Shown here: piece by piece, positions 4,577-27,511 of the stretch
Layout: the number at the start of each line of letters is the position of its first letter
Numbering within the stretch: position 1 is the stretch's first letter
DNA from: Bacillota bacterium
GTDB lineage: Bacteria > Bacillota > Clostridia > Oscillospirales > Oscillospiraceae
DNA: 46,275 nucleotides
Direction: 5' to 3'
Assembly: GCA_021768085.1 (NCBI GenBank)
Contig: JAETOJ010000033.1
Span: forward strand, 1-46,275
Made by a program: the position numbers and the translations under genes
Notes under the pieces: model-generated
The model's database searches: none
What the model saw: only the letters and a program-made list of their open reading frames with translations
What the model was told of the DNA's origin: nothing

Positions 4577-4605
4577 GCGGGAGAAACGACAACGGCCCAG
4601 TTTGT

Positions 4606-4713
4606 CGAATTCACTTCCTACGCCGGCATTACCCGGATCAGGTACGAGGGACCGGAGACTGCGCTTTGTCTCACATCACAGCCGGGGATGACCCCCAGCG
4701 CCCCTGTGATATT
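4606..4713 (-). ncRNA. TPP (THI-box) riboswitch
   Basis: The minus strand contains the hallmark of the thiamine pyrophosphate aptamer, TACCTGATCCGGGTAATG followed by CCGGCGTAGGAA, plus the 5' GGGGCGC block and TGAGA. P1 is formed by GAATATCAC (4713-4705) and GTGAATTC (4613-4606). It lies between the thiT promoter and thiT, so TPP binding should reduce expression. Confidence 0.92.
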
Positions 4714-4736
4714 CCATTCACTATGCGGTTGAGCTT

Positions 4737-10656: not shown

Positions 10657-10818
10657 GTGAAAGAAGGGCTAAAGAAAACAGTTTCCATCTTGCTCCCAGA
10701 GGATCTGTATCAGGAGCTACAGGCGCTGGCGGCAGAATCCTCCCGGCCGCTGTCGGCCTATTTCCGGCAGGTATTAAAGGCGCACCTGCAATACCTGGAT
10801 CGATTCCGGAAGCCGTAA
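10657..10818 (+). CDS. Ribbon-helix-helix protein, module 1
   Basis: 53-aa protein with a ribbon-helix-helix (Arc/CopG-like) pattern: strand 'KKTVSILLPEDLY', helix 'ELQALAAESS', turn, helix 'LSAYFRQVLKAHLQYL'. It would bind DNA as a dimer. GTG 10657 is 8 nt after the GAGG of GAGGTGAT. It is divergent to the XRE gene and clearly paralogous to the RHH gene at 14339-14554, sharing about half of its residues. No toxin-like partner is seen; the pair may be a regulatory switch or part of a selfish module. Confidence 0.7.
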   Translation: MKEGLKKTVSILLPEDLYQELQALAAESSRPLSAYFRQVLKAHLQYLDRFRKP

Positions 10819-10886: not shown

Positions 10887-11064
10887 TCCGTATGCAAGAG
10901 AAACCCAGGCGCTCCAAAGAGAACCCTGACTTCTCAGTATCTGAGAAACGCAGGCCCGGTGTGGGCCGGAAAAAGAAGGGAAGCCCATTCGTAACCCGCA
11001 ATAGCCGGTCACTCCCGCACAACCTGAAAGCGGCGAAGGGGGTACATAGGGGCACAGCCCCTAT

Positions 11065-11106
11065 GCGCGCTCTTTGGTTACTTTCTCTCGCGTGAGAGAA
11101 AGTAAC
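11065..11106 (+). repeat. Palindromic repeat, copy 1
   Basis: GCGCGCTCTTTG (11065-11076) followed by a 30-bp palindrome starting GTTACTTTCTCTC and ending GAGAGAAAGTAAC (11077-11106). Preceded by the hairpin CATAGGGG...CCCCTATG. Same orientation as copy 3. It supplies the last codons and stop of the metallophosphoesterase gene on the minus strand. Confidence 0.85.
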
Positions 11107-11752
11107 CCCCCGCGGAGCGGCGCCCCAGGCGCTTCCACCAGGGCTGAGGGGCCTCCTCCCGATCCGGCAGCTCAATGAGGTACTTGCCGAAGGCGTTCAC
11201 TACCTTGGTGTCCCCATACTGCCGCAGCCGCGGCTGTGTGGGGACGTACTGTAAATGTACGTGCCCGTAGCAGTGGTACAGGGGATGATAGCGATCCAGC
11301 AGCTCCCGGAAGCAGGCAAACCCCCGGTGGCAGTAGTCCTCCATGTCCCCCAGTCCCTGGGCGGGGGCGTGGGTGAGCAGGATGTCCACCCCACCCCGGC
11401 GCAGGCCGGCCCCTAACCGGGCAATCCGCCGTTTCATTCCCCGCTCCGTGTACTGGTGGGGACCTCGGCTGTACTCAATGCTGCCCCCCAGGCCCAGAAT
11501 CCGGTAGCCCCGGAAGGTGACAATCTCCCCGTCGATGCAGTCGCAGCCCTCCGGCGGGTTTTGATCATATTTCACGTCATGGTTGCCGTGGACGTAGAAC
11601 AGGGGGATATTGCCCATGGTCACCAGAAAGCTGAGGTAGCTGGCGGGCAGATCCCCGCAGGATAAAATGGCGTCCGCCCCGCCCAGCTTGTCCTTGGTAA
11701 AATAGTCCCAGAGGCCGGGGTCGGCGGCGTCCGAGATCACCAGCAGCTTCAA
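11078..11752 (-). CDS. Calcineurin-like metallophosphoesterase
   Basis: 224-aa soluble enzyme. Metal-ligand motifs are seen in order: 'ISDAADP' near residue 7 (where D-x-H is usual, so the His is replaced), 'CGDLPAS' near 33, 'GNHDVKY' near 56, 'LTHAPAQG' near 128 and 'YGHVHLQ' near 163. The substrate is unknown. The C-terminus (GYFLSRERK) is encoded by the palindromic repeat, so the original end has been replaced or extended. It overlaps the stop of the upstream ParB-like/BMP gene by 4 bp and is surely co-transcribed with it. Confidence 0.8.
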   Translation of the reverse strand: MKLLVISDAADPGLWDYFTKDKLGGADAILSCGDLPASYLSFLVTMGNIPLFYVHGNHDVKYDQNPPEGCDCIDGEIVTFRGYRILGLGGSIEYSRGPHQYTERGMKRRIARLGAGLRRGGVDILLTHAPAQGLGDMEDYCHRGFACFRELLDRYHPLYHCYGHVHLQYVPTQPRLRQYGDTKVVNAFGKYLIELPDREEAPQPWWKRLGRRSAGGYFLSRERK

Positions 11753-13702: not shown

Positions 13703-13838
13703 GGCAGGGGTGCGCCCTGCCGGGGGCGTTACTTTCTCTCTCGCGAGAGAAAGTAACCAAAGAGCGCGCTTAGGGGGTGGCCTCCGGCGGACGCTGCGCG
13801 TCCTTAGTCGGCCACCCCCTAAGAACCCCCTTTTACGG
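13703..13838 (+). repeat. Left inverted-repeat arm with palindromic copy 2
   Basis: Arm: GGCAGGGGTGCGCCCTGCC, GGGGGC, the 30-bp palindrome (13728-13757), CAAAGAGCGCGC and CTTAGGGGG, then a 14-bp stem (CTTAGGGGGTGGCC with GGCCACCCCCTAAG, about 13768-13821) and AACCCCCTTTT. About 75 bp of its outer part is repeated in inverted orientation at 14729-14804 with one or two differences. The following 13839-14020 stretch holds no gene. Confidence 0.85.
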
Positions 13839-14338: not shown

Positions 14339-14554
14339 ATGATAAGCGGCCCGAAGAAAACAATTTCTATAATCGTACCATTGGATCTCTATGAGGAGTT
14401 GAACGCACTGGCAAAACGCACTTCCCACTCCCTGTCGGCCTACCTCCGGCAGGTGTTAAAGGCACATCTGCACTATATCCGGCGGGTTTCCCCGCGCCCA
14501 GTCAATCCACCGCACCATCCAGGCGCTAACCGAGGGAACCGCCCGGAATCCTAA
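14339..14554 (+). CDS. Ribbon-helix-helix protein, module 2
   Basis: 71-aa protein. The first 50 residues form the RHH fold: strand 'KKTISIIVPLDLY', helix 'ELNALAKRTS', helix 'LSAYLRQVLKAHLHYI', close to the module 1 homologue. The remaining Pro/Arg-rich tail (about 51-71) is absent from module 1 and may be read-through into non-coding sequence. ATG 14339 is 9 nt after GAGG; the upstream TTG at 14333 is less well spaced. Divergent to the XRE gene. Confidence 0.7.
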   Translation: MISGPKKTISIIVPLDLYEELNALAKRTSHSLSAYLRQVLKAHLHYIRRVSPRPVNPPHHPGANRGNRPES

Positions 14555-14651: not shown

Positions 14652-14804
14652 TAAACGGGGGTTCTTAGGGGGGGGAGACGCCTGTGAGCGAGGGAGCGCC
14701 CTTCGCTCCCGAAGTCGAACCGGCGGCTCCCCCCCTAAGCGCGCTCTTTGGTTACTTTCTCTCGCGAGAGAGAAAGTAACGCCCCCGGCAGGGCGCACCC
14801 TGCC
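14652..14804 (-). repeat. Right inverted-repeat arm with palindromic copy 3
   Basis: Mirror of the left arm: CGGGGGTTCTTAGGGGG, a variable loop, CCCCCTAAG, GCGCGCTCTTTG, the 30-bp palindrome (14751-14780), GCCCCCGGCAGGGCGC and ACCCTGCC. With the left arm it encloses a ~1.1-kb unit containing XRE module 2. The following 14805-14887 contains only a GC-rich hairpin that may end lepA. Confidence 0.85.
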
Positions 14805-14887: not shown

Positions 14888-16699
14888 CTACCCCTCGTCA
14901 TCAATCTTGAGCACCGCCATGAATGCCTCCGTAGGCATTTGCACCGTACCCAGAGAGCGCATCTTCTTTTTGCCTTCCTTCTGCTTCTCAAGCAGTTTTT
15001 TCTTCCGGGTGATGTCGCCGCCGTAGCACTTGGCCAGCACGTCCTTGCGCAGGGCCTTCAGGGTCTCCCGGGCGATGACCTTGCCGCCGATGGCCGCCTG
15101 GATGGGCACCTCGAACATCTGACGGGGGATGTTCTCCTTCAGCTTCTCGCAGATCCGCCGCGCCCGCTTGTACGCCTTCTCACGGTGGGCGATGAAGGAC
15201 AGCGCGTCCACCTGGTCGCCGTTGAGCAGCAGATCTACTTTCACCAGATCCGACGGCCGATATTCGTCCAACTCATAGTCCAGGGAGGCATAGCCCCTGG
15301 TTTTGGCCTTCAGCGTGTCGAAAAAGTCGTAGATGATCTCGTTCAGCGGCATGAGATAGCGGATCTCCACCAGGTTGGTGTCCAGATACTGCATATCCTT
15401 GTACTCCCCCCGGCGATCCTGGCACAGGGGCATGATGGCCCCCACATAGTCCGGCGGGGTGATGATGGACACGGCGGCGTAGGGTTCCATGGCCTGCTTG
15501 ATGGAGCCGGGGTCGGGGTAGTTGTGGGGGTTGTCCACCCGCACCACAGTCCCATCCGTTTTCGTCACCTCGTAGATAACGGAGGGTAATGTGGTGATGA
15601 GATCCAGATCAAACTCCCGCTCCAGCCGCTCCTGGATGATCTCCATGTGGAGCATCCCTAAAAAGCCGCACCGGAAGCCAAAGCCCAGGGCCACGGAGGA
15701 CTCGGGCTCGAAGGACAGGGAGGCGTCATTGAGCTGGAGCTTCTCCAGGGCGTCCCGCAGGTCTGGGTATTTGGAGCCGTCCTCGGTATATACGCCGCAG
15801 TACACCATGGCCTGGGCGGGGCGGTAGCCGGGGAGGGCCTCTGCCGTGGGCCGGGCAGCCTCGGTGATGGTGTCGCCCACCCGGGTATCTTTCACGTTCT
15901 TGATGGAAGCGGTAAACCAGCCCACCTCGCCGGCGGACAGCTCGGGGGCGCTGTCCATGCCCAGGGGCCGCAGGTAGCCGCAGTCCAGTACCGTATACTG
16001 GGCCCCGGAGGCCATGAGGCGTACCTGCATCCCGGGGCGTAGCGTGCCCTCCATGATGCGGAAGTAGACGATGACGCCCAGGTACGGGTCGTACTGGCTG
16101 TCAAAGATCAGGGCCTTCAACGGGGCACCGGGATCGCCGGCAGGGGCGGGGATGTTGTGTACGATGTCCTCCAGCACCGCGGGGATGTTGATCCCCTGCT
16201 TAGCGGAGATCTCCGGGGCGTCCAGGGCGGGCAGGCCGATGATGTCCTCAATCTCGTGCTTTACCCGCTGGGGGTCAGCGGCGGGCAGATCGATCTTGTT
16301 GAGCACCGGCCGGATCTCCAGGTCGTGCTCCAGGGCCAGGTAGGTGTTGGCCAAGGTCTGGGCCTCCACCCCCTGGGCGGCGTCCACCACCAGCACCGCC
16401 CCCTCGCAGGCCGCCAGGGAGCGGCTCACCTCGTAGTTGAAGTCCACGTGGCCCGGGGTGTCGATGAGGTTCAGGCAGTAGGTTTCCCCATCGGCAGCCT
16501 TGTAGTCCATACGAACCGCCCGGGCCTTGATGGTGATGCCCCGCTCCCGCTCCAGATCCATGTTGTCCAGCAGCTGGGAGGCCATCTGCCGCTGCTCCAC
16601 CGCGCCGCAGATCTCAATCATCCGATCCGACAGGGTGGATTTGCCGTGATCAATGTGGGCGATGATGGAAAAATTGCGGATTTTAGATTGGTCGGTCAT
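14888..16699 (-). CDS. lepA: Elongation factor 4 (LepA)
   Basis: 603-aa translational GTPase of full family length that back-translocates or aids 30S assembly on the ribosome. G1 'AHIDHGKST' near residue 14, G2/switch 'RERGITIKA' near 51, G3 'DTPGHVDF' near 80, G4 'NKID' near 134, then EF-G-like domains and the LepA-specific C-terminus ending '[17 protein letters not shown]'. ATG 16699 lies after GGAGGTTTCTTT. The first ~75 bp including ribosome site and start codon are duplicated upstream at 16873-16947 with mostly synonymous changes, on the other side of a repeat element. Confidence 0.98.
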
Positions 16700-16947
16700 A
16701 AAGAAACCTCCGTAGGCAAATCCACCCTGGGGCCCCGCCGACAGGTAGGGCGGCGCGAATGCGCCGTAAATTCGGAGCCGCAGGCGGAGAATTTTCGCAG
16801 GGCGAATTCACTTCGCCCAAGAACATAAAATCATAAGGGGCCCCCACAAAATCGTCAGATTTTGTGGGGAACGGATTTGCCGTGATCAATATAGGCGATG
16901 ATGGAAAAGTTCCGGATTTTCGATTGATCTGTCATAGCTTACCTCCG
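16637..16947 (-). repeat. Duplicated lepA 5' end around a repeat element
   Basis: Copy 1 (16637-16712, joined to lepA) and copy 2 (16873-16947) align over about 75 bp; codon differences are mainly third-position, so both encode [13 protein letters not shown]. Copy 2 stops after 26 codons (16855-16935). In between: CGAATTCACTTCG, and GGGGCCCCCA, an ACAAAATC...GATTTTGT hairpin, TGGGGAAC. The element begins with GGCAAATCCACCCTG (16715-16729), the exact reverse complement of 16631-16645 inside lepA. Confidence 0.8.
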
Positions 16948-20376: not shown

Positions 20377-21354
20377 ATGTTCCGAAAACTGATTCAAAAA
20401 CTGAAGCACAACCCCAAGACCATCGTGTTCACCGAGGGCTCCGATCCCCGCATTCTGGAGGCCTCCGCCCGCCTGCTGTCCGGCACCTTCCTCACCCCCA
20501 TCCTCATCGGCAACAAGGAGGAGGTCCTGGCCGCCGCCGAGCGAGAGTGCCTCAACGTGCGGGACGTCCAGGTGCTGGATCCCGCCACCTATGAGGGCAT
20601 GGACGAGATGGTGGACAAGATGGTGGAGCTGCGCAAGGGAAAGATGACCGCCGACGAGTGCCGGGAGGCCCTGCTCAAGGCCAACTATTTCGGCACCATG
20701 CTGGTGGCCATGGGCAAGGCGGACTGCCTGCTGGGCGGCGCCACCTACTCCACCGCCGACACCGTGCGCCCCGCCCTCCAGCTTGTCAAGACCAAGCCGG
20801 GCAACAAGATCGTCTCCTCCTGCTTCATTCTGGTGCGGCCCTTCGCCACCGGCGGCAACCAGGTGCTGGCCATGGGCGACTGCGCCATCAACATCGATCC
20901 CACCGAGGACGAGCTCATCGAGATCACCCAAGAGGTGGCCAAGTGCGCCCGGATCTTCGGCGTGGATCCCAAGGTGGCCATGCTCAGCTACTCCACCAAC
21001 GGCTCCGGCAAGGGCCCCGTGGTGGATAAAATGCGCAACGCTACCAAGCGGCTCCAGGACATGATGCTGGACTTCCCCGTGGATGGCGAGCTCCAGTTCG
21101 ACGCCGCCGTCAGCCCCTCCGTGGGCCAGCTGAAGTTCCCCGGCTCCCCGGTGGCGGGCTACGCCAACACCTTCATCTTCCCGGAGATCACCTCGGGCAA
21201 CATCGGCTATAAGATCGCCCAGCGCATGGGTAACTTCGACGCCTACGGCCCCATCCTGCTGGGGCTGAACGCCCCCATCAACGACCTGTCCCGGGGCTGC
21301 AACGCCCTGGAGGTCTACTCCATGGCGATTATCACCGCCGCTTTAGCGGAGTGA
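20377..21354 (+). CDS. pta: Phosphate acetyltransferase
   Basis: 325-aa single-domain Pta: acetyl-CoA + Pi to acetyl-phosphate + CoA, the energy-conserving route to acetate in fermentation with acetate kinase (not in this window). It shows the family pattern 'IVFTEGSDPRILEA' near residue 14, 'GGATYSTADTVRPALQ' near 130 and 'MLSYSTNGSGKGP' near 207. ATG 20377 follows GGGAGG; longer in-frame starts lack ribosome sites. Its last 40 bp are present twice (21315-21354 and 21470-21509), with the functional stop in the first copy. Confidence 0.96.
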   Translation: MFRKLIQKLKHNPKTIVFTEGSDPRILEASARLLSGTFLTPILIGNKEEVLAAAERECLNVRDVQVLDPATYEGMDEMVDKMVELRKGKMTADECREALLKANYFGTMLVAMGKADCLLGGATYSTADTVRPALQLVKTKPGNKIVSSCFILVRPFATGGNQVLAMGDCAINIDPTEDELIEITQEVAKCARIFGVDPKVAMLSYSTNGSGKGPVVDKMRNATKRLQDMMLDFPVDGELQFDAAVSPSVGQLKFPGSPVAGYANTFIFPEITSGNIGYKIAQRMGNFDAYGPILLGLNAPINDLSRGCNALEVYSMAIITAALAE

Positions 21355-21509
21355 GCAGGTTTCGACGTGGAGTAGACCTCCGCCCGCGAAGCGGGCCGCC
21401 CAGGCGGAATTCACTTCCGCCGAGCATTTGCAATTTTCTGGGGCCCCCATGGGCAGGGCCCATGGGGAACTACTCCATGGCGATTATCACCGCCGCCCTG
21501 GCGGAGTGA
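21309..21509 (+). repeat. Duplicated pta 3' end around a repeat element
   Basis: CTACTCCATGGCGATTATC... to the stop is present at 21315-21354 and 21470-21509; three synonymous changes (GCT-TTA versus GCC-CTG) separate them, both ending ALAE-stop. The element starts with TGGAGTAGACCTCC (21368-21381), the reverse complement of GGAGGTCTACTCCA (21309-21322), contains GCGGAATTCACTTCCGC and GGGGCCCCCA, an ATGGGC hairpin, and ends TGGGGAAC, as at lepA. Confidence 0.8.
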
Positions 21510-24316: not shown

Positions 24317-27300
24317 ATGGCGGAGGAAAAAAACAGCGGCCTGCCCGGCGGGCAGGAGCAGGACACCATGATGGTATATATCAACCCGGAGGTCATCCAG
24401 AGCCTGGCCGACGTGTCGGCCAAAAAGGAGCAGTCCTTCCGGGAGCTGCTGGAGGCCGCCGAGGAGGGGGATCTGGACGCCCAGTACAAGGTGGCCATGA
24501 ACTACTGCAACGGCACCGGCGGCGCCCCCCGGGACGGGGAGCTGGCCTTCCAGTGGTTCACCCGGGCGGCAGAGGGGGATCACATCTCCGCTCAGTACAG
24601 CCTGGGCCTGTGCTGGCTGCGGGGCATTGGCGTGGAAAAGGATCCGGAAAAGGGCGTGCGGGAGCTCACCCTGGCGGCGGATCAGGGCTATCCCCCCGCC
24701 CAGTGTGAGCTGGGGCTGTGCTACGAGCTGGGCAACGGCGCGGAGATGGACAAGCTGCGGGCGGCGGAGCTGTACCGAGAGGCGGGGGAGGCGGACTACG
24801 CCCCCGCCCAGTGCAACCTGGGCTTCTTCTACTACCGGGGCATCGGGGTGGAAAAGGACTACGCCGAGGCGGTGAGCTGGTTCGCCAAGGCCGCCCAGCA
24901 GGAGTACCCCCGGGCCCAGACTCTCCTGGGCGAGTGCTTTGAGAGCGGCCTTGGGGTGGAAAAGGACGAGGAGAAGGCCGTGGAGCTCTACCGCGCCGCC
25001 CATGAGCAGGGGTACGACGCGGGCACCTGCTCCCTGGGCGTGTGCTACGACCGGGGCATCGGCGTGGAAAAGGACGAGAAAAAGGCGGTGGAGCTCTACC
25101 GCCGAGCTGATGAGGAGGGCTTCCTCCGGGGCACCTTCCTGCTGGGCCAGTGCTACGAGTACGGCACCGGGGTGGACAAGGACGAGGCACGTGCCGCCCA
25201 GCTCTACCAGAAGGCCTGCGGGGACGGGGACGACGACTATCCCCCCGCCATCTGCGCCCTGGGCCTGTGCTACGAGCTGGGCACCGGGGTGGAGGAGGAT
25301 CGCCCCCGGGCGGTGGAGCTGTACCGGCAGTCGGCGGAGCGGGGCTACGTCCCCGCCCAGTGCAATCTGGGCTTCTGCTACTACCGGGGCATCGGCACCG
25401 AGGTGGACGACAAACAGGCCGTCCACTGGTTTGAGCTGGCGGCGGAGGAGGGCTACCCCCGGGCCCTGGGCCTGCTGGGCGACTGCTACGACTTCGGCTA
25501 CGGCGTGGAGGCCGACCAGGCCAAGGCCCTGCGGCTCTACCAGGCGGCCAGCGACGGGGGCTATCCCCCCAGCATCTGCTCCCTGGGCCTGTGCTACGAG
25601 CTGGGCCGGGGGGTGGAGCAGGATCTGAACCGGGCGGTGGAGCTCTACCAGCAGGCAGCGGACGCCGGGGACGCCCGGGCCCAGTGCAACCTGGGCTTCT
25701 GCTACTACCGGGGCATCGGCGTGGCGGAGGACAACGATCAGGCCGCCTATTGGTTTGACAAGTCCGCCCAGCAGGGCCACGGCAGGGCGCTGTTCCTGCT
25801 GGGCCAGTGCTATGAGGCGGGCTTCGGCGTGGTTCAGGATCCGGCCCGGGCGGTGGAGCTTTACATACAGGCCGACGAGAAGGGCTTCCCGGCGGGCACC
25901 TGCGCCCTGGGGCTGTGCTATGAGCTGGGCACCGGCGTGGAGATGGACAAGGCCAAGGCCGTGGAGCTGTACCTAAAATCCGCCCAGGCGGGGGAGGCCC
26001 GGGCCCAGTGCAATCTGGGCTTCTGCTACTACCAGGGTATCGGCACGGCGGTGGACGACAAGGAGGCCGTCCACTGGTTCCAGGCCGCCGCCGACCAGGG
26101 CTATCCCCGGGCCCTCCAACTGCTGGGCGAGTGCTATGACAACGGCTACGGCGTGGACAAGGACGAGAACAAGGCGGCAGAGCTGTTCCGGCAGTCCCAC
26201 GAGGCGGGCTTCCCGGCGGGCACCTGCTCCCTGGGCCTGTGCTATGAGCTGGGCACCGGCGTGGAGCAGGATCGATCCCGGGCGGTAGAGCTCTACCGGC
26301 AGGCGGCGGAGGCGGGTTATGTCCGGGCTCAGTGCAACCTGGGCTTCTGCTACTACCAGGGCATCGGCGTGCCGGAGGACAACGTGGAGGCCGTCAAGTG
26401 GTTTGCCAAGGCCGCCGAGGCCGGCCAGGCCCGGGCCCAGCAGCTGCTGGGCGAGTGCTATGAAAACGGGTACGGGGTGGAGGTCGATCTGGAAAAGGCG
26501 GTGGAGCTGTACCGGAAGTCCCACGAGCAGCACTACGCCACCGCCACCTGCGCCCTGGGCACTTGCTATGAGTTCGGCAAGGGAGTGGCCCAGGACAAGG
26601 CCCGGGCCGCCGCCCTCTACAAGGAGGCAGCGGAGGCCGGCAGCTCCTGGGGGCAGTGCAACTACGGCTTCTGCCTGTACCAGGGCATCGGCGTGGACAT
26701 GGACGACAACGAGGCCGTCAAATGGTTCCGGGAAGCGGCCAAGCAGGGCAGTGCCCGGGCCCACTTCCTGCTGGGCGAGTGCCACGAGTACGGCTACGGC
26801 GTGGACAAGGACATAGACGAGGCCGTCCGCCTCTACGAGATCGGCCACCGGGGGGGCTACGCTGCCTCCACCTGCTCCCTGGGCCTGTGCTATGAGCTGG
26901 GCCGGGGGGTGGAGCAGGACAAAGAGAAGGCCCGGGAGCTCTACCGGCAGGCGGCGGAGCGGGGCAACGCCCGGGCCCAGTGCAATTTGGGCTTCTTCTA
27001 CTACCACGGCATCACCGTGGAGGAGGACAACGAGCAGGCCGTCCAGTGGTTCCGGCGGGCCGCCGACCAGGGCTATGCCCGGGCACAGTTCCTGCTGGGC
27101 GAGTGCTATGAAAACGGCTACGGGGTGGGCAAGGATCCCGCCGAGGCGGTGCGGCTTTACATCCTGTCCGACCAGGGCGGGCATTCGGACGGCTCCTGTT
27201 CCCTGGGGGAGTGCTACCTTCGGGGCTTCGGTGTGAAGCGGGACAAGGCCCGGGCCGTCCAGCTCTTTCAGAAGGCGGCGGACAAGGGCAACACCAGGGC

Positions 27301-27511
27301 CATGCACCTGCTGGGCCAGTGTTATGAGCAGGGCTCCGGCGTGGAGCGGGATCTGGAAAAGGCCCGGGAGCTCTACCGACAGGCAGCAGGCAAGGGCAAC
27401 AAGCGGGCCAAAGAGGCCCTGGAGCGCATGACGGCGGGCAGCGCCCCGGCCCCCCAAAAGCCGGAGCAGAAACAGGATCGCAAGGGCTGGTGGCCCTTCG
27501 GCAAAAAATAA
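24317..27511 (+). CDS. Giant Sel1-like repeat protein (27 repeats)
   Basis: 1064-aa cytoplasmic solenoid protein without signal peptide. After about 52 residues come 27 consecutive 36-residue Sel1 (TPR-like) units; the tail ends GWWPFGKK. From about the eighth unit the repeats follow a three-unit pattern: type A 'TCSLGLCYELGTGVEQD', type B 'QCNLGFCYYxGIG', type C 'LLGECYENGYGV', repeated six times (about 108 residues per set). Each unit carries conserved Cys residues, giving well over fifty, unusual for a solenoid. Such proteins are scaffolds for protein-protein contacts. ATG 24317 follows AAAGGAAG. rpoN starts 39 bp downstream and may be co-transcribed. Confidence 0.9.
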   Translation: MAEEKNSGLPGGQEQDTMMVYINPEVIQSLADVSAKKEQSFRELLEAAEEGDLDAQYKVAMNYCNGTGGAPRDGELAFQWFTRAAEGDHISAQYSLGLCWLRGIGVEKDPEKGVRELTLAADQGYPPAQCELGLCYELGNGAEMDKLRAAELYREAGEADYAPAQCNLGFFYYRGIGVEKDYAEAVSWFAKAAQQEYPRAQTLLGECFESGLGVEKDEEKAVELYRAAHEQGYDAGTCSLGVCYDRGIGVEKDEKKAVELYRRADEEGFLRGTFLLGQCYEYGTGVDKDEARAAQLYQKACGDGDDDYPPAICALGLCYELGTGVEEDRPRAVELYRQSAERGYVPAQCNLGFCYYRGIGTEVDDKQAVHWFELAAEEGYPRALGLLGDCYDFGYGVEADQAKALRLYQAASDGGYPPSICSLGLCYELGRGVEQDLNRAVELYQQAADAGDARAQCNLGFCYYRGIGVAEDNDQAAYWFDKSAQQGHGRALFLLGQCYEAGFGVVQDPARAVELYIQADEKGFPAGTCALGLCYELGTGVEMDKAKAVELYLKSAQAGEARAQCNLGFCYYQGIGTAVDDKEAVHWFQAAADQGYPRALQLLGECYDNGYGVDKDENKAAELFRQSHEAGFPAGTCSLGLCYELGTGVEQDRSRAVELYRQAAEAGYVRAQCNLGFCYYQGIGVPEDNVEAVKWFAKAAEAGQARAQQLLGECYENGYGVEVDLEKAVELYRKSHEQHYATATCALGTCYEFGKGVAQDKARAAALYKEAAEAGSSWGQCNYGFCLYQGIGVDMDDNEAVKWFREAAKQGSARAHFLLGECHEYGYGVDKDIDEAVRLYEIGHRGGYAASTCSLGLCYELGRGVEQDKEKARELYRQAAERGNARAQCNLGFFYYHGITVEEDNEQAVQWFRRAADQGYARAQFLLGECYENGYGVGKDPAEAVRLYILSDQGGHSDGSCSLGECYLRGFGVKRDKARAVQLFQKAADKGNTRAMHLLGQCYEQGSGVERDLEKARELYRQAAGKGNKRAKEALERMTAGSAPAPQKPEQKQDRKGWWPFGKK

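What the first reader, a model, noticed from the sequence alone, without database searches (positions are those of the whole stretch)
21309..21509. pta 3' end duplicated with synonymous codons around a related repeat element
The last 40 bp of pta occur at 21315-21354 and 21470-21509; ALAE-stop is encoded by different codons (GCT TTA versus GCC CTG). The element opens with the exact inverse of 21309-21322, again crossing the duplication border by 6 bp, shares GAATTCACTTC and GGGGCCCCCA...TGGGGAAC with the lepA element, and ends at the second gene copy. Two independent genes with the same architecture argue for a defined mobile or recombinogenic element that targets gene termini.
Basis: partly seen in the sequence, partly recalled or inferred. 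Interest (0 to 1): 0.85.

Follow-up and report, generated by a model that had tools for sequence, protein, structure and literature searches.

The report
Guide-carrying elements that replace gene ends
Short non-coding DNA elements in gut bacteria sit near the ends of important genes, carry a replacement gene end plus a short stretch complementary to their own insertion site, and look like a new kind of site-directed mobile element whose enzyme is still unknown.

Summary
In this genome the same plan was seen at pta, lepA, groES, asnS and truA. A covariance model matches 38 of 42 genomes of the genus (own included), up to 36 places each.

A unit reads: gene body; replacement gene end (the working copy); spacer; a guide, the reverse complement of the junction (9-21 nt; 12-16 in 56 of 93); hairpins; a GAATTCACTTC hairpin; a terminal CCCC...GGGG hairpin; the displaced original gene end. 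Of 142 copies with full flanks, 125 have the duplication (control 1 of 122). The loop between junction arm and guide is 69-73 nt in 50 of 93. The two gene ends differ at 161 synonymous and 29 nonsynonymous codons in 43 copies. For pta, 27 of 29 readable alleles look empty.

Best reading: a non-autonomous, guide-directed mobile element that replaces gene ends and so spares its target. The enzyme is not found: five candidate families do not follow copy number and all are absent from a 98%-complete genome with 29 copies. No Rfam family or paper found matches it.

The parts
20377..21314 (+). pta gene body up to the insertion point
   Evidence: NCBIfam phosphotransacetylase / TIGR00651 pta above cut-off; ORF ends at 21354
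21309..21322 (+). junction arm GGAGGTCTACTCCA (6 nt of gene body + 8 nt of the left copy)
   Evidence: 14-nt perfect inverted repeat with 21368-21381
21315..21354 (+). left copy: replacement 3' end of pta with stop (working end)
   Evidence: 37/40 identical to 21470-21509
21355..21367 (+). spacer between stop codon and guide, no similarity to the region after the original stop
21368..21381 (+). guide: reverse complement of the junction
   Evidence: family statistics
21382..21396 (+). first hairpin after the guide (GCCCGC GAA GCGGGC)
   Evidence: in the family, similarity between elements at different targets begins at or inside the guide end
21403..21421 (+). conserved hairpin GGCGGAA TTCAC TTCCGCC
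   Evidence: alignment A1, compensatory pairs
21440..21469 (+). GGGGCCCC, terminal hairpin (arms 21445-21454 / 21458-21467) and right end AA
21470..21509 (+). right copy: displaced original 3' end of pta
   Evidence: continuous with the gene body in the alleles of relatives that look empty
14888..16636 (-). lepA gene body (element on the opposite strand)
   Evidence: TIGR01393 lepA
16637..16699 (-). replacement 5' end of lepA with start codon (working end)
16700..16712 (-). element-borne ribosome-binding region of lepA (GGAGGTTTCTTT before the ATG on the - strand)
   Evidence: sequence
16631..16645 (+). junction arm of the lepA element
   Evidence: 15-nt inverted repeat with 16715-16729
16715..16729 (+). 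guide of the lepA element
16730..16799 (+). variable hairpin region of the lepA element
16800..16818 (+). conserved hairpin GGGCGAA TTCAC TTCGCCC
16837..16872 (+). GGGGCCCC, terminal hairpin (arms 16842-16853 / 16858-16869) and right end
16873..16935 (-). displaced original 5' end of lepA; encodes IIAYIDHGKS where the working copy has [10 protein letters not shown]

Best explanation
This is a family of short (about 113-190 nt plus a gene end) non-autonomous mobile elements that insert at one exact site chosen by base pairing. The inserted unit runs from the start of the left copy to just after the terminal hairpin. It carries (i) a functional replacement of the target gene's end, (ii) a guide of usually 12-16 nt complementary to the uninterrupted target (mostly 3-6 nt of gene body plus 7-9 nt of gene end), and (iii) a structured scaffold that folds on the + strand. 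Insertion displaces the original gene end to the right and leaves the gene working. SHOWN by sequence: architecture, family, guide complementarity, favoured loop length, alleles without the element, synonymous divergence of the two ends, scaffold shared between different targets. INFERRED: that the guide directs a single-stranded form of the unit (ssDNA or RNA) to the matching site, where an enzyme supplied in trans cuts between gene body and gene end and joins the unit; and that target-specific lineages spread between species by such homing, while new lineages arise rarely by acquiring a new guide and gene end. The step I think most likely is a single-strand cut-and-join with the guide in the role of the left guide of IS200/IS605 elements (about 0.35), ahead of nuclease-induced homologous repair (about 0.25) and target-primed reverse transcription (about 0.2).
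For: Copies: matches in 38 of 42 genomes of the genus and 40 of 245 of the order, many of the latter weak. Duplication in 125 of 142 copies with full flanks; control 1 of 122. Guide of at least 8 nt spanning the junction in 76 of 111, against 10 of 1110 displaced junctions; own junction above the foreign 99th percentile in 94 of 110. Loop 69-73 nt in 50 of 93 although the stop codon lies at varied distances. L/R codon differences 161 synonymous, 29 nonsynonymous; 161 of 198 mismatches at third positions, in 43 copies whose frame could be fixed (same-gene copies counted apart): both ends evolved as coding sequence, which a local duplication followed by decay would not give. pta: 27 look empty, 2 occupied of 29 readable; the two occupied (G000, G024) share the exact junction, and G028, 97% identical in pta, is empty. 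In the 80 best of 227 pairs of elements at different targets, similarity starts -1 to +3 nt from the guide end in 37 and further inside in 33. About 45 target groups among 93 junctions. G.U outnumbers A.C in stems 171 to 61, so the + strand folds. Tandem units exist.
Against: No enzyme was found, and none of the 93 copies measured has room for a gene. Copy number does not follow Y1, RT, TnpB, IscB or IS110 matches (Spearman rho -0.25, 0.00, -0.21, 0.03, -0.20); none of the five is in G036 with 29 copies. In 6 of 28 same-gene pairs compared (chosen from the best scaffold matches) the element is 96-99% identical between species, but the left copies only 83-95%, with parts resembling the host's own right copy: the gene end does not simply travel with the scaffold, so conversion or repeated exchange must be added. 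Where the two ends differ in the guide region, the guide fits the left copy better in 21, the right in 8, ties 26 (binomial p 0.024), which may mean a role in cis (folding, excision) rather than targeting. 35 of 111 lack a strict guide match. 43 of 93 loops lie outside 69-73 nt. The right end varies by a few nt after GGGG. All inference is from sequence, mostly metagenome assemblies.
Confidence: 0.6

Rival explanations
1. Homing by RNA-guided double-strand break and homologous repair: the guide plus scaffold is a guide RNA for a nuclease encoded elsewhere; it cuts empty alleles and the break is repaired from an occupied allele, copying the element with short co-converted flanks.
For: Guide 5' of a conserved folded scaffold; mosaic left copies, part host-like and part element-like; same-gene elements most alike between species; empty and occupied alleles at one junction.
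Against: The left junction of an occupied allele still matches the guide, so it would be cut too; no conserved motif flanks the target (at most 0.77 bits, at the junction itself); IscB over the cut-off in 1 of 42 genomes, itself without a match to the element, and TnpB absent from element-rich G036, G002 and G060.
Confidence: 0.25
2. Target-primed reverse transcription: a transcript of the unit pairs through its guide with the top strand, the displaced strand is nicked at the junction and primes cDNA synthesis from the terminal hairpin; the gene-end part of the cDNA anneals upstream, much as in prime editing.
For: Geometry fits (guide pairs with the strand opposite to the primer); the right end varies by a few nt as RNA 3' ends do; + strand folding.
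Against: No RVT_1 reverse transcriptase in G020 (36 matches), G036 (29) or G061 (24); antisense 5' insertions such as lepA cannot rely on the gene's promoter.
Confidence: 0.2
3. An immobile cis-acting element: a local repeat-generating accident followed by selection for a 3' or 5' structure (terminator, mRNA stability, regulation).
For: The guide fits the cis copy somewhat more often (21 versus 8); strong hairpins; favoured loop length.
Against: Same plan sense at 3' ends and antisense at 5' ends (lepA, typA, miaA); about 45 target groups; patchy presence at one exact junction; scaffold shared between different targets; synonymous excess.
Confidence: 0.08
4. Assembly or binning artefact.
For: Most sequences are metagenome assemblies.
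Against: Records titled as strains show the full plan: Flavonifractor plautii ATCC 29863 (L202), Pseudoflavonifractor capillosus An827 (L256), Oscillibacter valericigenes An907 (L229); the repeat arms differ from copy to copy.
Confidence: 0.01

Closest known systems
IS200/IS605 family elements and their non-autonomous derivatives (single-strand transposition, DNA guide in the left end)
   Same: Simple insertion at one strand-specific junction, a guide just 5' of a left hairpin that pairs with the target, a hairpin at the right end; GL pairs with the target and was lengthened artificially to 12-17 nt (PMC5934647, abstract and passages read)
   Different: IS608 GL pairs with a tetranucleotide (same passages); here usually 12-16 nt spanning both sides of the junction, about 71 nt of loop, a replacement gene end inside the unit, and no Y1 transposase in several element-rich genomes
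Integrative elements that insert in gene or tRNA ends and restore them (att core duplication; recalled)
   Same: The element supplies a new gene end and displaces the old one
   Different: Those are kilobase elements with an integrase, each family at one or few targets (recalled); here about 200 nt, no gene, about 45 target groups among 93 junctions, and a target-complementary guide
IscB/TnpB guide RNAs (OMEGA)
   Same: Guide joined to a folded scaffold; possible homing role
   Different: No associated nuclease, no adjacent motif, guide spans the insertion junction; no Rfam family matches the scaffold above its cut-off
IS110 bridge RNA (PMC11208160, seen in a search listing only)
   Same: Non-coding RNA said to direct programmable recombination of target and donor
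   Different: IS110 recombinase not found in G000, G036, G020, G061 and G002; here one contiguous complement of one strand (the two-loop form of the bridge RNA is recalled)
REP sequences and RAYT transposases
   Same: Many dispersed hairpin elements; one copy in G020 (uvrB) lies beside a RAYT-like gene
   Different: RAYT relatives in 6 of 42 genomes only; REPs carry no gene ends or long guides (recalled)
Group I/II introns and IStrons
   Same: Tolerated insertions in conserved genes; an internal guide complementary to the exon junction (recalled)
   Different: Too short, no Rfam intron match, stop codon before the element, antisense insertions, so splicing is not how the gene survives

Membership tests
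IS200/IS605 (Y1 HUH) | Y1 transposase able to act on the element, in the same genome | tested here: not met
   PF01797 in 16 of 42 genomes; none in G036 (29 element matches), G061 (24), G002 (20); only an interrupted one in G000. A lost or very divergent enzyme is not excluded
IS200/IS605 (Y1 HUH) | Left hairpin with a guide 5' of it, right hairpin, same strand | tested here: met
IS200/IS605 (Y1 HUH) | Short fixed target motif 5' of the insertion point | tested here: not met
   no position above 0.77 bits; the target differs per gene
OMEGA (IscB/TnpB) | Cognate nuclease gene | tested here: not met
   PF14239 over cut-off in 1 of 42; PF07282 over cut-off in 14 of 42, not in G036, G002, G000, G060
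OMEGA (IscB/TnpB) | Conserved adjacent motif beside the guide match | tested here: not met
IS110 / bridge RNA | DEDD recombinase in the genome | tested here: not met
   PF01548 in 20 of 42 (19 over the cut-off); none in G000, G036, G020, G061, G002
Retroelement (group II, DGR, retron) | Reverse transcriptase in the genome | tested here: not met
   PF00078 in 25 of 42; none in G020, G036, G061; other reverse-transcriptase models were not searched
Group I / group II intron | Conserved catalytic core | tested here: not met
   No Rfam intron match on the window (gathering) or on 8 element loci up to E = 1
REP / RAYT | Associated RAYT gene | tested here: not met
   Relatives of one RAYT in 6 of 42 genomes; among the loci held it is found only beside the uvrB element in L063 and L263
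Gene-end-restoring integrative element | New functional gene end supplied, old one displaced | tested here: met
Gene-end-restoring integrative element | Element-encoded integrase | tested here: not met
   Guide end to right junction is 88-181 nt in all 93 copies measured, no room for a gene
Any of the above | Observed transposition or excision | not testable with these tools
   needs an experiment

The most novel reading that the evidence does not exclude
A natural programmable insertion system: a roughly 200-nt non-coding unit carries its own target guide (usually 12-16 nt) and a replacement gene end, is placed exactly at the matching site by an enzyme of an unrecognised family supplied in trans, and can be re-addressed in evolution by changing guide and gene end together. 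Terminus replacement would be a third way, beside RNA splicing and protein splicing, for a homing element to live in essential genes.
Probability: 0.4. Interest if true: 0.95.

Novelty: categorically new. Interest (0 to 1): 0.85.

Why it matters
Few mobile systems choose their insertion site by base pairing (IS200/IS605 guides, OMEGA nucleases, bridge RNAs, group II introns, CRISPR-associated transposons; recalled). Here a very small non-coding unit appears to do so at many different conserved genes, several of them usually essential (recalled), and leaves them working. If confirmed, an unknown enzyme that writes about 200 nt at a site set by a short guide may be found in cultured gut bacteria, and the family offers a direct way to ask how homing elements survive in genes without splicing.

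Tried and rejected
Rfam: one match in the window at gathering threshold, a TPP riboswitch elsewhere; on 8 element loci five matches up to E = 1, all far below their family's cut-off, one of them (AsrC, 25.6 bits against 111) on the coding end of lepA in L004. Viral contigs: of 7 stretches with the bare palindrome, L020 and L021 look like true elements, and L018, L019, L022, L023, L024 showed neither duplication nor terminal hairpin; one more scan gave L337, an element between genes without duplication, and another gave nothing. The viral contigs were not searched for an enzyme. No phage or plasmid record matched the lepA scaffold at E up to 1e-5. Five enzyme families showed no significant rank correlation with copy number. 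The RAYT beside uvrB in G020 was a promising lead, but relatives are in 6 of 42 genomes and, among the loci held, beside the element only in L063 and L263. Copies without a duplication were looked at for a master copy with an enzyme: the copies between DnaB-like and ParA-like genes (L115, L116) lie near recombinase genes, a tyrosine integrase in L115 and a serine recombinase in L116, which differ from each other and fit prophages; whether either acts on the element was not tested, and tyrosine and serine recombinases were not profiled over the genus. The idea that the guide tracks the right copy was not supported. My one search flagged every pta allele as empty through a wrong search pattern; corrected. 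The split between 3'-sense and 5'-antisense copies depends on the heuristic (76 and 17; 61, 31 and 1 unclear), so I give no ratio. Rows dropped before counts: 158 distinct hits, 142 with full flanks, 125 with duplication, 111 with the right copy starting within 12 nt of the element end, 110 distinct junctions, 93 with an inverted repeat of at least 9 nt. The loci are mostly the strongest matches, not a random sample. Literature: eight searches were answered and nothing describing this element was listed; only PMC5934647 was opened (abstract and passages); other papers were seen in listings only.

Full report
Check of the observation. The last 40 bp of pta occur at 21315-21354 and again at 21470-21509, differing at three bases in two codons (GCT TTA versus GCC CTG), with no similarity after the stop. 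The junction GGAGGTCTACTCCA (21309-21322) has a perfect reverse complement at 21368-21381, 6 nt of it from the gene body and 8 nt from the copy. The lepA element at 16631-16935 has the same plan on the opposite strand of its gene: a 64-nt repeat at 89% identity holding the lepA 5' end, a 15-nt junction complement at 16715-16729, GAATTCACTTC at 16804 and a terminal CCCC...GGGG hairpin. The listed ORFs use the copy attached to the gene body, so the element supplies the working gene end. The displaced lepA copy reads IIAYIDHGKS instead of [10 protein letters not shown]; that this histidine is conserved is recalled.

It is a family. In the window's genome three more copies were found at once, at groES, truA and asnS; the truA copy lacks a clear terminal hairpin. 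A strict pattern matched 8 of 60 genomes, own included. A covariance model built from 16 copies (9 of 17 predicted pairs show changes on both sides) matches 38 of 42 genomes of the genus, own included, with 36 places in G020, 29 in G036, 28 in G060, 24 in G061 and 8 in the window's genome, and none in G012, G013, G015 and G026. In the order 40 of 245 genomes match, many of them at weak E-values. Target genes checked with NCBIfam are pta, lepA (5' and 3' ends), asnS, groES, infB, secA, glmS, uvrB and formate-tetrahydrofolate ligase, and truA, miaA, serC and typA. Grouped by sequence, 93 junctions fall into about 45 target groups; some look like phage or plasmid genes by eye.

Architecture and statistics. 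Of 158 distinct hits, 142 have full flanks and 125 of these have a strong direct duplication, 111 of them with the right copy beginning within 12 nt of the element end. At random positions of the same loci the same test fires in 1 of 122. A reverse complement of at least 8 nt spanning the junction exists in 76 of 111, against 10 of 1110 displaced junctions. Scored against foreign junctions, the own junction lies above the foreign 99th percentile in 94 of 110 and beats every foreign one in 68 of 110. With slack for the border, 93 distinct junctions show an inverted repeat of 9-21 nt, 12-16 nt in 56, most often starting 3-6 nt before the border and ending 7-12 nt after it.

The most telling number is the loop between junction arm and guide: 69-73 nt in 50 of 93, with small groups near 36 and 95-101, in both orientation classes. 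The stop codon may lie anywhere within it and the spacer makes up the difference. Indels would blur this quickly, so I take the distance to be selected. In the stems non-Watson-Crick pairs are G.U rather than A.C on the + strand, 171 to 61, so the + strand folds as a single strand. This does not tell RNA from ssDNA, and the conserved GAATTCACTTC hairpin alone shows 5 to 13, the other way.

Where the two gene ends come from. In 43 three-prime copies with an unambiguous frame, L and R differ at 161 synonymous and 29 nonsynonymous codons, and 161 of 198 mismatches fall on third positions. A local duplication with a decaying spare copy would not give this; both ends have lived as coding sequence since they separated. 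The copies are not all independent, since several come from the same gene in related species. For pta, 39 of 42 genomes give a long match. Of the 30 such loci fetched, 27 look empty, 2 are occupied (G000 and G024) and 1 could not be read; in G002 and G014 only 80 and 97 nt follow the junction, so G014 in particular is not certain. G028, 97% identical in pta, is empty, while G024, 86% identical, is occupied at the same base with a different scaffold. Elements at the same gene in different species are the most alike. In 6 of 28 same-gene pairs compared the element is 96-99% identical while the left copies are 83-95% identical, with stretches that match the host's own right copy. So the left copy is often a mosaic of element-borne and host sequence, as short conversion tracts would leave. 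Elements at different genes share 80-90% of the scaffold in the best pairs. In the 80 best of 227 such pairs the similarity begins -1 to +3 nt from the guide end in 37 and further inside in 33; 8 of the other 10 begin inside the gene, and the printed ones are same-gene pairs that passed my filter. Similarity often stops about 20 nt short of the right end, in the terminal hairpin. The movable scaffold therefore begins right after the guide, and guide and gene end are renewed with each new target.

Mechanism. The plan resembles the left and right ends of IS200/IS605 elements, where a guide 5' of a hairpin pairs with the target and was lengthened artificially to 12-17 nt (PMC5934647, abstract and passages). 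But Y1 transposases are in 16 of 42 genomes and missing from element-rich ones, and the target has no fixed motif. Reverse transcriptases (RVT_1) are missing from G020, G036 and G061. TnpB, IscB and IS110 also fail. None of the five correlates with copy number, and G036, 98% complete with 29 places, has none of them. Either the enzyme is of another or an unrecognised family, or G036 has lost it; some of its right copies show nonsynonymous changes (L091, L092), in line with older insertions. Tyrosine and serine recombinases were not profiled. I rank single-strand cut-and-join first, break-and-repair homing second, and target-primed copying third. Against simple targeting stands that the guide fits the left copy better than the right where they differ (21, 8, ties 26), which points to a role in cis as well, for example in releasing the unit.

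Known or new. No Rfam family above its cut-off, no phage or plasmid record, and no paper in eight answered searches of the held library matches it. It works like a gene-end-restoring integrative element and like a guide-bearing single-strand element at once, but fails at least one defining test of each known family considered. I rate it categorically new as a kind of element, with the mechanism open.

Noticed in passing
11055-11111, 13708-13777, 14731-14800: Three copies of a 57-70 nt palindrome-bearing repeat (GTTACTTTCTCTCGCG...AGAGAAAGTAACC), two of them perfectly inverted to each other over 70 nt, around small regulator-like ORFs; looks like a separate repeat family.
   Followed up: no
10672-10793 and 14354-14475: Two 72%-identical 122-nt stretches that look like paralogous short regulator or antitoxin genes, each with a helix-turn-helix-like ORF nearby (by eye).
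   Followed up: no
24317-27511: 1064-aa ORF made of many 108-nt (36-aa) repeats, probably a Sel1-like repeat protein (name recalled, not searched).
   Followed up: no
4598-4715: TPP riboswitch on the - strand (Rfam RF00059, 56.6 bits).
   Followed up: no
L063:881-1405 (- strand): RAYT-like Y1 transposase shortly after the uvrB element in G020; relatives in 6 of 42 genomes.
   Followed up: partly
L020:4964-5160: Two elements in tandem between genes of a viral contig, without gene-end duplication.
   Followed up: no
L115:10089-10204 and L116:9013-9125: The best- and fifth-scoring model matches sit between DnaB-like and ParA-like genes in prophage-like regions of two species, without a duplicated gene end.
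   Followed up: partly
L036, L062, L244, L021, L047: Right copies that still contain the guide and sometimes the first hairpin of an earlier element, i.e. nested or tandem insertions at one site.
   Followed up: partly
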